Positions 37,712-44,922 of a stretch of DNA of 64,000 nt are shown here, one piece after another. The stretch lies in IMG/VR virus record IMGVR_UViG_3300049460_000312, positions 124,001-188,000 of that record. One strand, written 5' to 3'. Numbering within the stretch: position 1 is the first letter of the stretch; each line of letters begins with the position of its first letter. Below the pieces are notes generated by a model. It saw nothing but the letters and a program-made list of their open reading frames with translations, had not been told where the DNA came from and searched no databases. Position numbers and translations under genes: made by a program. This DNA is from a virus.

Positions 37712-38941
37712 TTAGAGACCGAGGAGAGCTGCCAACGAGCCCTTGACCAGACGCGGGTCAATGGTGTTGTTATTGTTCAGCGACCGCGAGCCTGCGGTGT
37801 TGCCGTCCTGTTTGGGCAGCTGATCATTGTACTGACTCAACAGCGCCACAGCCGGGAAGTCCCGTTTGATCGCTTCCCCTACCGTCACCTCACGGTACAC
37901 TGAAGCAAGCCCGTAGACGCCCTGTACACGCACCGGAGGGGTATTGCCTTTCGACTGTTCGGTCGCCCAGTACCGCACCCCCGTCATCAACAGGTTGGAG
38001 AAGTCATTCGAGCCCCCCATCAGGGCCAGCAGGTTCACCGCCGAGTTCCCATCCCCGCCACGTTGCAGCAAGTCCCAGGTCGAATCCACATTCTCGAAAG
38101 AATGGAAGATGTCTTCGAAACTAGTGAGGGTCTGGCCCCGATCGCCCCGATACACGAAAGCCTTGGAGAAGCTTTGCGTGAAACCCGGTGAGAACACATT
38201 GATCAGCTTACCCGCGTTGGAGCTTGCCAGATCCCGCAGCATCTTGGTGTCGCTGTTGCGCAAGGCAATCGGTAAGACGGCACGGGTCACCCGTCCCAGA
38301 ATACCATTGTCGGTGATCGTATCGGCAATCGACTTGAACGCCCCCGAGATACCCAGGTCCGACGCGGTGGTAATCACCGAGCCCAGCAGGCCCGAGATGG
38401 CGCCCTTGTCCTGGCCGGAGAAGATCTTGGTGCCGGTGTACTTGTTGATGAAGTTACCGAGCGAGCGGATATCGTTAATCTTGGCCGAATTCACCAGCGA
38501 CTTGGTGTCGTTGATGGTACAGACCAGCGACGCCGCTTTCTTCTGCGCGTACGTCTTGAGCATCGCGCCTTGCTTGAGCTTGTCGTTCAGGCCATTGTAC
38601 ATGTCCCGGAATTCGCTGTTGGTGCCGAGTAAGCGGTCCGTGAGCGTCTTCGCGTCAAACTGCAGATCCTGACCAACCTTCTTCAGGAAGTCGGCGGCGT
38701 CACCGGCCGCCAGTTTTACATCCAGGAGCTTCGCATTGATTTCAAGCTCCAGGTCCTGGATAGACGTGATCACCGCGTCCTGTGCGCCGTCAATCGCACT
38801 GGTGATCTTGTACACGTCGGCCGTAGCCACATCGTCACTCGCCCCTCCCGAGAACGTGCCTTGAGCCAGTGTCGGGATTACCGGAATATTCGGCGTGGGG
38901 AGATTCGGAATACCAAACGACGGAAGCGATGGGAGATCCAT
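37712..38941 (-). CDS. Probable virion structural protein, 409 aa
   Basis: ATG 38941 has AGGTGG 3-8 bases upstream. The first 30 residues are Pro-rich with a repeated PxLP/PNxP pattern (LPSLPSFGIPNLPTPNIP), a possible binding or plug tail. The remainder is helical with Ala/Leu/Lys heptad-like runs around residues 60-130 and a Asn/Ser-rich C-terminus. No enzyme motif. It is convergent with the 702-aa gene near the tail hydrolase, and phiKZ has virion proteins at the same place, so a tail-associated or internal virion protein is likely. Confidence 0.7.
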   Translation of the reverse strand: MDLPSLPSFGIPNLPTPNIPVIPTLAQGTFSGGASDDVATADVYKITSAIDGAQDAVITSIQDLELEINAKLLDVKLAAGDAADFLKKVGQDLQFDAKTLTDRLLGTNSEFRDMYNGLNDKLKQGAMLKTYAQKKAASLVCTINDTKSLVNSAKINDIRSLGNFINKYTGTKIFSGQDKGAISGLLGSVITTASDLGISGAFKSIADTITDNGILGRVTRAVLPIALRNSDTKMLRDLASSNAGKLINVFSPGFTQSFSKAFVYRGDRGQTLTSFEDIFHSFENVDSTWDLLQRGGDGNSAVNLLALMGGSNDFSNLLMTGVRYWATEQSKGNTPPVRVQGVYGLASVYREVTVGEAIKRDFPAVALLSQYNDQLPKQDGNTAGSRSLNNNNTIDPRLVKGSLAALLGL

Positions 38942-39048: not shown

Positions 39049-39630
39049 TTACTTCTTCAGGTAACGCTTCTCGGCGTCGAGCCACACGGAAGGAATAACC
39101 CCTTCCTTGAGTGCGGTCCGAATATCCTCGAATCCCTGGACGAGCCAATCGGCTTCCTTGGGAGTTACATGCACGCTGTTGGGGCCAAACGTGTAGTAGT
39201 GATCAAACGGCAGCTCGGACTCCAGGACTAACTCCAGAATCCGGTCGTGCTGAATGATCTTCTGGTAGTTGGCCGCGATGATGTCCTGCTTAAACTCCGC
39301 GTACCACTTGTACCCCAACGTCCGTCCCACTTGCTTCGCCCGAAAGCCGCTCAGATAACGCAGCCGGTCTTCGGTGAAGCCCGAGCGCGCCCAATACCAT
39401 AAACCTTCCATAGAATAGAAAGGTCCGAAGTACGGGTGCGTGAACGGAGCATGTGCAAAATGCGACAGGAGGCGGCCGAGTTCCGTTTTCCCCACCGAGT
39501 GGATGTTGATGTGATCCACCCCATCCTTATCGGAGGAGAAGCCAAGAATGCTATTCTGGCCGTGGTGATACTTGGACTGGGTTGCGACGTCTTTGCGATT
39601 CATAGCTGTGTGTCTCTGTGGATGCGTCAT
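39049..39630 (-). CDS. Probable NADAR-family (YbiA-like) protein, 193 aa
   Basis: NADAR proteins bind or hydrolyse N-glycosidic bonds in ADP-ribose-like compounds; some remove ADP-ribose from modified DNA bases. Residues ~50-150 line up with E. coli YbiA as I remember it: LGRLLSHFAHAPF with GDFSNFAAWPI, YSMEGLWYWAR with TSEHYFQAQKF including the conserved Glu (here about residue 74), AKQVGRTLGYKW with AARMGRD, then a helical run ending in a TFG strand. The Asn of SNF is replaced by His, so activity is uncertain. The start at 39630 overlaps the previous stop (ATGA); ATG 39603 is an alternative. The call is by eye and needs a profile search. Confidence 0.5.
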   Translation of the reverse strand: MTHPQRHTAMNRKDVATQSKYHHGQNSILGFSSDKDGVDHINIHSVGKTELGRLLSHFAHAPFTHPYFGPFYSMEGLWYWARSGFTEDRLRYLSGFRAKQVGRTLGYKWYAEFKQDIIAANYQKIIQHDRILELVLESELPFDHYYTFGPNSVHVTPKEADWLVQGFEDIRTALKEGVIPSVWLDAEKRYLKK

Positions 39631-40466
39631 TTGCGGTGAGCAAAGTTGACGGGCGTTTCGCACTCGCAAATCGAACCATCTTCCCGATATGCGGTGAGGT
39701 GGATAGTAAAATTGGCCACCTGCAAAAAGCGTAACGCTTTGCAGAAGACCTTCCACGTCATCTTGGAGAGGCGAAACTCCTTGTTCAGATTACCGCGCAC
39801 ACTTTGCCGCTTCTCCGCCGTCAACTGACCTTCAGTCACATCGATGAAGGTGGTCAACATCTGGTTCCACTGGATCTGTGAGAACCCTTTCCCATCCGTG
39901 ATATTCAGACAGATGAGATTGAACAGGCGCGCCAGGACCCCGCTGGCACCGCTGCTGTACGTGCGCTGCGACGCACGCCTGCCCTTGCTATCGTTGCGAT
40001 GCACCGCCGCACCCATCGGCAACTCTTTGGGGAACAGATGCTCGAACTTGCTGTTGGGCACAAAGCTCACGCTGGTATGCGCATGAAACTCCCGACCATC
40101 CAGCAACTCGCCATACACGCTCACCGTGAAGGCTTCGAACTTCAGGAACTTCAGACCCTTTTGCACCAGGACATTCCACGTCATGGAGGGTCGACGCAGT
40201 TCCTTGTTCACGTTCCCACGAATGCTGGAGCGATCCATCGTGGTGTTACTCTCGACCACCTTGCGGATATAGTCGATCATCAGCTTGTTCCACTGGATCG
40301 GCGAGATCCCTCGACCACCAGTCACGTCCAGACAGATGGTATTAAAGAGGCGTGTAAGAACACCCTCGATGCCGCCAGAGATGCGAAATCCCTGTGTTAT
40401 TTGCTTGTCGCTCAGCGGCATGCCCGGGATAATCCGGACGGCGCTTGAGCGTTGCTTCGTTTCCAT
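39627..40466 (-). CDS. Hypothetical protein made of two copies of one ~105-aa domain, 279 aa
   Basis: ATG 40466 follows AAAAGGAATCGAGCT. The two halves are clear duplicates: GVLTRLFNTICLDVTGG with GVLARLFNLICLNITDG, ISPIQWNKLM with FSQIQWNQML, RGNVNKELRRPSMTW with RGNLNKEFRLSKMTW, and a closing FTVSVYG/FTIHLTA strand region. The conserved Arg/Lys and Trp residues and the helical pattern suggest a nucleic-acid or protein interaction fold. No known family is recognised. The stop overlaps the start of the NADAR-like gene (ATGA), so the two are translationally coupled. A hairpin repeat lies in the leader at 40505-40526. Confidence 0.75.
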   Translation of the reverse strand: METKQRSSAVRIIPGMPLSDKQITQGFRISGGIEGVLTRLFNTICLDVTGGRGISPIQWNKLMIDYIRKVVESNTTMDRSSIRGNVNKELRRPSMTWNVLVQKGLKFLKFEAFTVSVYGELLDGREFHAHTSVSFVPNSKFEHLFPKELPMGAAVHRNDSKGRRASQRTYSSGASGVLARLFNLICLNITDGKGFSQIQWNQMLTTFIDVTEGQLTAEKRQSVRGNLNKEFRLSKMTWKVFCKALRFLQVANFTIHLTAYREDGSICECETPVNFAHRK

Positions 40467-40504
40467 AGCTCGATTCCTTTTCGGGAAAAGCATGTGATTA
40501 TTTG

Positions 40505-41133: not shown

Positions 41134-41538
41134 TCAGTGCAGATGCTCCGAGGGAGTAGGCGGCATGCTCGCCGGATTAAACACGATATACCCGTCGCAC
41201 GTCCCGACCATCGCAGAATTGTCCAGCACTTGCAGATACTCGCTGGAGCTGAGTTTCTGATCGTCGTCAGCTTCGACCAGCACCCCTTCCGCATTCAGCC
41301 GGGCAAACGCCTTATTCACGCTGTGATTGACGAGCGACCGCATGTATTCCGGTCGGGTGTCATCAAAACGCTTATTGGCTTCGGCCACGGTCTGCTTGAT
41401 CACGCTCTGCAGAGCTTCCTGCGGCACGCGAAAACAGAGCATCGGGTAGATGATCACGTTCAGCACTTTCTCCCCGTCATCATGGGGAAAAGCTCTGACA
41501 TACTCTTTGGCGATAGGAAACTGGGTATTGACAGTCAT
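41134..41538 (-). CDS. Hypothetical protein, 134 aa
   Basis: ATG 41538 has no clear ribosome site. The acidic protein (EADDDQKLSS) is predicted mixed alpha/beta, with a hydrophobic strand early (VLNVIIYPMLCFRV) and a Pro/His-rich C-terminus. No motif recognised. A CATATTAC motif lies ~65 bases upstream on the same strand, so early transcription by the virion polymerase is plausible. Divergent from the 175-aa acidic gene. Confidence 0.68.
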   Translation of the reverse strand: MTVNTQFPIAKEYVRAFPHDDGEKVLNVIIYPMLCFRVPQEALQSVIKQTVAEANKRFDDTRPEYMRSLVNHSVNKAFARLNAEGVLVEADDDQKLSSSEYLQVLDNSAMVGTCDGYIVFNPASMPPTPSEHLH

Positions 41539-43790: not shown

Positions 43791-44465
43791 TCAGATTCCA
43801 GAATTCGAAATGTGCATCGAGGTCAGTAGCGTCGAGAGCGACTGGACTGCCTTGACCTTGGTGCCCAGCTGATCGATCGCGTGTAGCGAGACCCCGCCGG
43901 TGTTGGAGATCATGTTGTTCATGGCGTTAAACCCTTGCAGGTCACCGCCACGGAATTTGAAGAACTCCTGGATCGTGTTGTCAAAGCCGCCGAGCGCGGC
44001 CAGGATCTGCAGTTCCGGCCAGGAGATCTTCGAGCCCTTGGATTTACCCGTCGGCTGACCCGTAAAGGTATCGATCGAGCGGTTGTCCTCCGGAATCGAG
44101 ATCTTCTTGATCAGGAACTGAGCCTGACGCTTGAGCGGCAGATCAACGACCAGGTATTCATCGTTGGAGAGGTAGGCAGGTGAGCCGTTCTGCGGGTCCA
44201 TCCAGACGCGTTCCAGGAACTTGTGACCCCATTGGTCAGCCACATTCAGATTCCGTTCCACGTCCAGCGTCACCGCGCCCAGCTCGGGCACGATCACGGC
44301 GAGGTAGCGCTCGCCGCTTTCCAGTTCTTCAATCCAGCGCTCGAACTCACTGTCCTGCATGACCTTGAAGATGTCCTGGTAAATCTTGGTATTCTCGCTG
44401 CCGGGAAGAATCGCCTCGATGCACTCGATCAATTCCTTCTCAGCTGCCTTGCGGTTTCCACTCAT
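43791..44465 (-). CDS. Hypothetical protein, 224 aa
   Basis: ATG 44465 (MSGNRKAAEKELIECIE) with AAGG about 9 bases upstream is preferred over an upstream start at 44519; it overlaps the end of the SLOG gene by 26 bases. The product begins with a charged helix, contains a beta-rich centre (GERYLAVIVPELGAVTLDVERNL within residues 50-75) and ends in a helical, Ser/Thr-rich region. No motif identified. Coupled expression with the SLOG-like gene is likely because of the overlap. Confidence 0.7.
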   Translation of the reverse strand: MSGNRKAAEKELIECIEAILPGSENTKIYQDIFKVMQDSEFERWIEELESGERYLAVIVPELGAVTLDVERNLNVADQWGHKFLERVWMDPQNGSPAYLSNDEYLVVDLPLKRQAQFLIKKISIPEDNRSIDTFTGQPTGKSKGSKISWPELQILAALGGFDNTIQEFFKFRGGDLQGFNAMNNMISNTGGVSLHAIDQLGTKVKAVQSLSTLLTSMHISNSGI

Positions 44466-44922
44466 GATGTCTAGCCTTGAATCGGTTAGCGGAGAACTGG
44501 GCCTTGCGGCGTGCTTCACGCTCTAGCCACCACTGATCCGGCTTGACCAGAACCAGCGAGACATGAACGCCCAGTTTGCGTGTGTTTTCGATCATCTCCT
44601 TGGTGCCGCATGACTCGCCGTCCCAGAACACCAGCAGGTGGGTGAGGACTTTGCGCATCTCGGCATTACGGATATGTCCTGCAGCCTTACCTAATCCATC
44701 CCAATCAGCAGGGAAAGTAAAGCATGACACACTATGTTCTTCCGCCCATTCAATCGCTAAACGATCAGGGCCTCTCCAGGCGTCGCCGGAAATTAACGCA
44801 TACTTCTGTCCGGCACCCGCCCAAGAGAGAAACGCTCTCAGGCAGATGTCGAACAGGTATGCGTTATGCCAAGACCTACTTCCGGCTACACAGATTCGCA
44901 CTGGGTAGTCGAGGAGGTCCAT
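44440..44922 (-). CDS. SLOG/DUF2493-like (YspA-type) nucleotide-binding protein, 160 aa
   Basis: SLOG domains are Rossmann-like folds that bind nucleotides or their derivatives. This protein has the family layout: an N-terminal strand and Gly loop (RICVAGSRSW), the central SGDAWRGPDRLAIEWAEE with the GADxLAxxWA-type motif at about residues 45-60, then PADWDGLGKAAGHIRNAEM, which matches the FPADWxxxGxxAGxxRNxxM signature of DUF2493, and a LLVFWDGESCGTKEMI strand-loop. The match is strong by eye. No effector domain is fused. It sits between the 181-aa and 224-aa genes. The ligand and role in infection are unknown; nucleotide signalling or salvage are possibilities. Confidence 0.78.
   Translation of the reverse strand: MDLLDYPVRICVAGSRSWHNAYLFDICLRAFLSWAGAGQKYALISGDAWRGPDRLAIEWAEEHSVSCFTFPADWDGLGKAAGHIRNAEMRKVLTHLLVFWDGESCGTKEMIENTRKLGVHVSLVLVKPDQWWLEREARRKAQFSANRFKARHHEWKPQGS

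What the first reader, a model, noticed from the sequence alone, without database searches (positions are those of the whole stretch)
39049..39630. Possible phage NADAR protein, a candidate counter-defence enzyme
The 193-aa product resembles YbiA/NADAR at several points, including the conserved Glu in SMEGLWYW. NADAR enzymes are known to remove ADP-ribose from guanine bases, and bacteria use DNA ADP-ribosylating toxins (DarT-type) against phages. A phage-encoded member could reverse such modification or handle NAD-derived signals. The key Asn of the SNF motif is His here, so it may have changed specificity.
Basis: inference. Interest (0 to 1): 0.6.

Follow-up and report, generated by a model that had tools for sequence, protein, structure and literature searches.

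The report
Jumbo-phage NADAR with altered active site
This gene of a large bacteria-infecting virus makes a protein with the fold of NADAR enzymes, which remove ADP-ribose from DNA bases; it still has the key catalytic residues, but it belongs to a virus lineage in which this gene keeps its place and fold while many members lose those residues.

Summary
The gene is real. It lies on the minus strand at 39603-39049 (184 aa from the start codon conserved in a relative; 193 aa from an upstream ATG). It is a divergent NADAR-superfamily protein: Pfam's NADAR model misses it, but a 49-sequence family profile has NADAR 8bau and YbiA as its best PDB matches, profile-profile comparison gives 96% with both YbiA and T4 gp30.3 (64, 65; controls at most 3%, 96), and its confident model (pLDDT 93) retrieves only NADAR crystal structures. 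It keeps the catalytic Glu (E66), Arg at the Lys position (R73) and the phage-type His (H135). SNF to SHF is a clade trait. The phage encodes ChmA (107) and a SLOG protein whose homologue is fused to this NADAR in Erwinia phages. Unexpected: the gene has a conserved slot in phiKZ-like jumbo phages, and in that clade 18 of 27 members lost E66 or H135, against 0 of 55 outside, with fold and purifying selection kept. Best reading: an ADP-ribose N-glycosidase against host NAD/ADP-ribose-based defence (inferred), in a lineage drifting towards a non-catalytic role. Membership about 95% likely; activity and role moderate.

The parts
39049..39603 (-). NADAR-superfamily CDS, 184 aa (conserved start)
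   Evidence: start; profiles; model and fold search
39604..39630 (-). upstream alternative ATG that gives the 193-aa reading; overlaps the stop of the 288-aa gene; not conserved in L001/L020
39460..39462 (-). codon of His48 (Asn of the SNF motif in other NADARs)
39406..39408 (-). codon of Glu66, aligned with catalytic E88 of C7 NADAR / E43 of P. nicotianae NADAR / E48 of YbiA
   Evidence: PMC11543638
39385..39387 (-). codon of Arg73, at the place of catalytic Lys K95 of C7 NADAR (E+7)
39322..39336 (-). codons of K90 to R94 (AKQVGR), aligned with the pyrophosphate loop K75-R79 of P. nicotianae NADAR
39199..39201 (-). codon of His135, at the place of the phage-type last-strand His (D171 of C7, E125 of P. 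nicotianae)
   Evidence: placing inferred from the shared L..H motif
44440..44922 (-). YAcAr-type SLOG protein, 160 aa; its homologue is the C-terminal half of NADAR-SLOG fusions in Erwinia jumbo phages
39627..40493 (-). 288-aa gene directly upstream, phrog_4910; syntenic neighbour
37712..38941 (-). 409-aa gene directly downstream, phrog_5028; syntenic neighbour
43791..44519 (-). phage RNA polymerase beta subunit gene (phrog_3233), syntenic neighbour; true start probably further inside

Best explanation
The gene encodes a divergent phage-type NADAR, an ADP-ribose N-glycosidase. SHOWN: family membership by sequence profile and predicted fold; E66, R73, K90, R94 and H135 at the places of the published catalytic and pyrophosphate-binding residues; a conserved slot in phiKZ-like jumbo phages; a linked SLOG gene. 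INFERRED: it binds the ADP-ribose part of a substrate with the K90-R94 loop and R73, holds the distal ribose between E66 and H135, and hydrolyses the C1''-N-glycosidic bond. This would free a base in DNA or RNA, or break a small NAD-derived signal, before host ADP-ribose-based immunity stops the infection; the linked SLOG protein would handle a related nucleotide. I rate soluble ADP-ribose derivatives, or ADP-ribosylated nucleic acid outside the phage nucleus, as somewhat more likely substrates than DarT1-modified phage DNA. Superfamily membership about 0.95; active hydrolase about 0.6; counter-defence role, given activity, about 0.7.
For: Best PDB sequence matches of the family profile are NADAR 8bau (E 1.7e-4) and YbiA; hhalign 96% to YbiA and gp30.3 with clean controls; the model retrieves only NADAR structures from the PDB. 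The catalytic set E-R-H is kept; K95R in C7 NADAR still hydrolyses in vitro and His-type gp30.3 is active on guanine-ADP-ribose (PMC11543638, PMC11125620). Fusions and neighbours belong to the ADP-ribose/nucleic-acid network: YAcAr SLOG, DUF4326, UDG, PD-(D/E)XK, RNA ligase/PNKP, Sir2. Purifying selection.
Against: No activity was measured. The clade to which the protein belongs has lost E66 or H135 in 18 of 27 members, and the window protein shares its loss of Tyr35 and Asn48. The D..WG motif of YbiA-type NADARs is absent (against 61). No Macro, DarT or SIR2 gene was found in the own genome. The gene lies among tail-fibre, virion and transcription genes and not in a recognised anti-defence cluster.
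Confidence: 0.58

Rival explanations
1. A NADAR-fold pseudoenzyme: in nucleus-forming jumbo phages the slot gene has become a binding or structural protein (an ADP-ribose or nucleotide sensor, or a transcription or virion-associated factor), and the window copy merely has not lost its catalytic residues yet.
For: 18 of 27 slot-clade members lack E66 or H135, none of 55 outside, while the fold is kept and pN stays below pS. Two phages with eroded slot copies carry a second intact copy fused to DUF4326. The slot lies among virion and RNA polymerase genes.
Against: The window protein itself keeps E66, R73, K90, R94 and H135, as do its nearest relatives L020, L021 and L022 except for K/R exchanges. 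The rows are related, so few independent losses are shown (at least 4 for E66 and 3 for H135). E88A in C7 NADAR had only a minor effect in vitro.
Confidence: 0.27
2. A dedicated anti-DarT1 enzyme that removes ADP-ribose from guanines of phage DNA.
For: Guanine de-ADP-ribosylation is the only activity shown across the superfamily, gp30.3 included. K90 aligns with K115 of C7 NADAR, which is needed for rescue from DarT1.
Against: gp30.3 and YbiA do not rescue from DarT1 in cells; Arg at the K95 position abolishes rescue in C7 NADAR. The phage encodes ChmA, so its DNA is probably enclosed in a protein shell.
Confidence: 0.1
3. A YbiA-like housekeeping N-glycosidase that clears reactive riboflavin intermediates.
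For: Same fold; YbiA has this reported activity (cited in PMC9503650).
Against: The YbiA-specific last-strand Glu and D..WG motif are absent; no riboflavin gene was noticed in the window, though none was searched for systematically.
Confidence: 0.04

Closest known systems
T4 gp30.3 family (Pfam Phage_30_3, phage NADAR)
   Same: Phage-borne, LSNF...SMEGF...G..AK..G layout, last-strand His in place of Glu or Asp; hhalign 96.0%
   Different: Pfam Phage_30_3 does not detect the window family; extra HIN..G N-terminal motif and HYY motif; Arg instead of Lys at E+7; SHF instead of SNF; different genomic slot
E. coli YbiA / DarT1-linked NADAR (8bat) / P. nicotianae NADAR (8bau)
   Same: Predicted fold, catalytic Glu, pyrophosphate loop
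   Different: No D..WG motif, no last-strand Glu or Asp, no DarT or YarT partner; Pfam NADAR does not reach it
NADAR/SLOG/DUF4326 network of large phages (PMC9503650, PMC7824862)
   Same: Those papers predict NADARs in jumbo phages, with SLOG and DUF4326 fusions, expressed early or packaged in virions; the same combinations were seen here
   Different: In the passages read, no mention of the fixed slot in ChmA-type phages or of the active-site erosion
PHROG families 652 and 11222
   Same: The window protein matches both (E 1e-42 and 1e-22); phrog_11222 spans NADAR plus SLOG
   Different: Both are labelled unknown function; this report assigns the fold

Membership tests
NADAR superfamily | Sequence profile match to known members | tested here: met
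   Family profile: 8bau E 1.7e-4, YbiA second in the whole PDB; hhalign 96% with clean controls. The single protein does not reach Pfam NADAR.
[quoted passage not shown]
   AlphaFold2 pLDDT 92.9; only NADAR structures among credible Foldseek PDB matches. Predicted, not solved.
NADAR superfamily | Catalytic Glu (C7 E88) | tested here: met
   E66
NADAR superfamily | Lys seven residues after it (C7 K95) | tested here: inconclusive
   R73; Arg keeps in vitro activity in C7 NADAR but loses rescue
NADAR superfamily | SNF motif | tested here: not met
   SHF; the same in most of its clade. The motif is not a published catalytic requirement in the papers read.
NADAR superfamily | Hydrolysis of guanine-ADP-ribose | not testable with these tools
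   needs purified protein
Phage (gp30.3-type) NADAR | His at the last-strand catalytic position | tested here: met
   H135, invariant in 55 of 55 distinct members outside the clade; the register with gp30.3 rests on the L..H motif
Phage (gp30.3-type) NADAR | Match to Pfam Phage_30_3 | tested here: not met
   No hit for the window protein; only L094 gives a weak one (E 0.035)
DarT1-associated NADAR (BC4488 type) | Last-strand Asp and adjacent DarT gene | tested here: not met
   His at that place; no DarT in the genome record
YbiA subfamily | Last-strand Glu and D..WG motif | tested here: not met

The most novel reading that the evidence does not exclude
In ChmA-type (nucleus-forming) jumbo phages an ADP-ribose hydrolase fixed in one genomic slot is being converted repeatedly into a non-catalytic NADAR-fold protein, with the SLOG gene kept nearby in several of them and an intact DUF4326-NADAR sometimes present elsewhere; the window gene is an early stage, with its active site remodelled but not lost. 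A possible cause is that the phage nucleus already shields DNA from ADP-ribosylating toxins, so selection on hydrolysis is relaxed while binding or structural use remains.
Probability: 0.3. Interest if true: 0.65.

Novelty: new variant of a known kind. Interest (0 to 1): 0.45.

Why it matters
A phage protein family present in more than 500 sequenced phage records and labelled 'unknown function' in PHROGs can be assigned to the NADAR fold and to a SLOG/DUF4326-linked ADP-ribose network, with named residues to test. The clade that contains the window gives a natural series, from intact to eroded active sites in one conserved locus, for asking what NADARs do in jumbo phages besides hydrolysis.

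Tried and rejected
Single-sequence Pfam, NCBIfam and PADLOC scans: no NADAR hit for the window protein. Near-identity DNA search against phages: nothing. A second copy in the own genome: none. A DarT, Macro or SIR2 partner in the own genome: none. A family match in phiKZ itself: none at E up to 10, although short models from the phages Phabio and Psa21 match in the viral fold library. The idea that the SNF Asn-to-His change is specific to this protein: rejected. Whether losses of E66 and H135 are linked events: too few independent pairs to say. Published anti-DarT NADARs of phages (remembered as 'AdfN', LeRoux laboratory) were not found in the held library, so that lead rests on memory and is not used as evidence. 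No paper was found that joins NADAR with chimallin or DarTG with the phage nucleus.

Full report
WHAT IS THERE. The interval 39049-39630 holds an open frame on the minus strand only. The start conserved in the closest relative (a 279,845-base IMG/VR contig, 79% identical) is ATG 39603, giving 184 aa. Between the two phages pS is 0.71 and pN 0.13, so the frame is a selected gene. The window is part of a 283,373-base virus record with phiKZ-type features: several phage RNA polymerase beta subunits, a UvsX-like recombinase, an S80 peptidase and a giant tail-fibre/transglycosylase gene. The record also encodes a homologue of the phiKZ nuclear shell protein ChmA (27% identity, query 13-573, E 1.9e-24).

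IS IT NADAR? The protein alone does not reach Pfam NADAR. It belongs to PHROG families 652 and 11222, both of unknown function, and tblastn finds relatives in 540 phage records. An alignment of 49 members (A3) has as its two best sequence matches in the whole PDB the P. nicotianae NADAR (8bau, E 1.7e-4) and E. coli YbiA (2b3w, E 0.34). Profile-profile comparison gives 96.2% with YbiA and 96.0% with T4 gp30.3; 80 column-shuffled controls reach at most 2.6% and reversed ones 3.0%. AlphaFold2 gives a confident model (pLDDT 92.9, pTM 0.87). Foldseek against the PDB returns the two NADAR crystal structures 8bau and 8bat with probability 1.00 and 0.95, and nothing else above 0.06; the E-values are moderate (0.019, 0.064) and the TM-scores 0.4-0.5. 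The viral library adds many NADAR-annotated proteins. I take superfamily membership as established, short of an experimental structure.

ACTIVE SITE. Published work (PMC11543638; PMC11125620) defines the residues. E88 and K95 of E. coli C7 NADAR (E43 and K50 in P. nicotianae) are catalytic, K75 and R79 of P. nicotianae shield the pyrophosphate, and a last-strand Glu (YbiA), Asp (DarT1-linked) or His (phage gp30.3 type) completes the site. By alignment the window protein has E66, R73 at the Lys position with the same E+7 spacing, K90 and R94 in the pyrophosphate loop, and H135 as the phage-type His. The placing of H135 rests on the shared L..H motif after the helical core; automatic alignments wander by a residue or two there. 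K95R in C7 NADAR still hydrolyses in vitro but no longer rescues cells from DarT1, and gp30.3 itself is active in vitro but does not rescue. This speaks against a simple anti-DarT1 role.

THE SNF ASN.

CONTEXT. The family is fused to a YAcAr-type SLOG domain in Erwinia Agricanvirus and relatives (L009, L081, L086), to DUF4326 (L141, L142), to a uracil-DNA glycosylase (L067) and to a PD-(D/E)XK nuclease (L042). In an Erwinia phage of the Vequintavirinae it lies between RNA ligase/PNKP genes and a Sir2-like gene. In the window the matching SLOG gene lies at 44440-44922, about 5 kb away on the same strand, between the recombinase and an RNA polymerase subunit. Its relative in Bosolaphorus (L009), 49% identical over 77 aa, is the C-terminal half of the NADAR fusion, which sits beside the same polymerase subunit and downstream of UvsX. 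The phrog_11222 profile covers both proteins. This agrees with the network proposed in PMC9503650, which reports NADARs in over 48% of medium and jumbo phages and argues that they mainly target small ADP-ribose derivatives.

EROSION IN A FIXED SLOT. In about 30 loci the gene occupies the same slot: RNA polymerase beta - 230 aa - 310 aa - (175 aa, opposite strand) - 134 aa - 167 aa - 288 aa - NADAR - 409 aa - (723 aa, opposite strand), with some genes undetected in some phages. A tree built without the active-site columns puts 27 slot members, the window included, in one clade (SH-aLRT 98). Of these, 18 have lost E66 or H135 and five have lost both; of 55 distinct members outside, none has. The losses need at least 4 changes at E66 and 3 at H135. 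In the clade Tyr35, the SNF Asn, the AKxxG loop, E66 and H135 have relaxed, while D27, G28, H31, N33, G43, P132 and Y136 stay invariant. Eroded pairs still show pN below pS (for example L079/L087 0.32 against 0.73), though synonymous sites are near saturation. The model of an eroded member (L064, pLDDT 84.6, Glu to Gln, His to Cys) still retrieves YbiA, 8bau and 8bat as its only credible PDB matches. Two phages with eroded slot copies (L043, L048) carry a second, intact copy fused to DUF4326; others, such as the 227-kb FLC6 record, have only the eroded one. Rows in the clade are related, so 18 of 27 is not 18 independent events, and residue loss need not abolish activity (E88A had a minor effect in vitro in PMC11543638).

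CONCLUSION. Best reading: a phage NADAR hydrolase with a remodelled active site, used against host NAD/ADP-ribose-based defence. Membership is shown; activity and role are inferred. The strongest rival is a protein on the way to a non-catalytic role. Phage NADARs in general are known, so this is a new variant of a known kind. The erosion pattern in ChmA-type phages is the part I did not find described, within a limited literature search.

Noticed in passing
window 44440-44922 (-): YAcAr-type SLOG gene between the UvsX-like recombinase and an RNA polymerase beta subunit; its homologue is fused to the NADAR in Agricanvirus.
   Followed up: partly
G000:C1:101358-103100 (-), outside the window: Homologue of the phiKZ nuclear shell protein ChmA, E 1.9e-24: the phage is probably nucleus-forming.
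   Followed up: no
G000:C1:28504-28830 (-), outside the window: Nudix-domain protein in the same phage, another possible ADP-ribose processing enzyme.
   Followed up: no
L141:1455-2468 (+); L142:916-1647 (-): DUF4326-NADAR fusions with an intact active site in phages whose slot copy is eroded.
   Followed up: partly
L067:4004-4993 (+): NADAR fused to a uracil-DNA glycosylase domain (Pfam UDG E 6.8e-14), which hints at a DNA-base substrate in that phage.
   Followed up: no
L042:4043-5668 (+): NADAR fused to a PD-(D/E)XK nuclease domain.
   Followed up: no
window 39627-40493 (-): The 288-aa upstream gene looks like two related halves (RISGGIEGVLTRLFN... and SSGASGVLARLFN...), with a weak Myb/SANT hit in the second half.
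   Followed up: no
window 41134-41538 (-): 134-aa gene without a PHROG match, conserved in the closest relative only.
   Followed up: no
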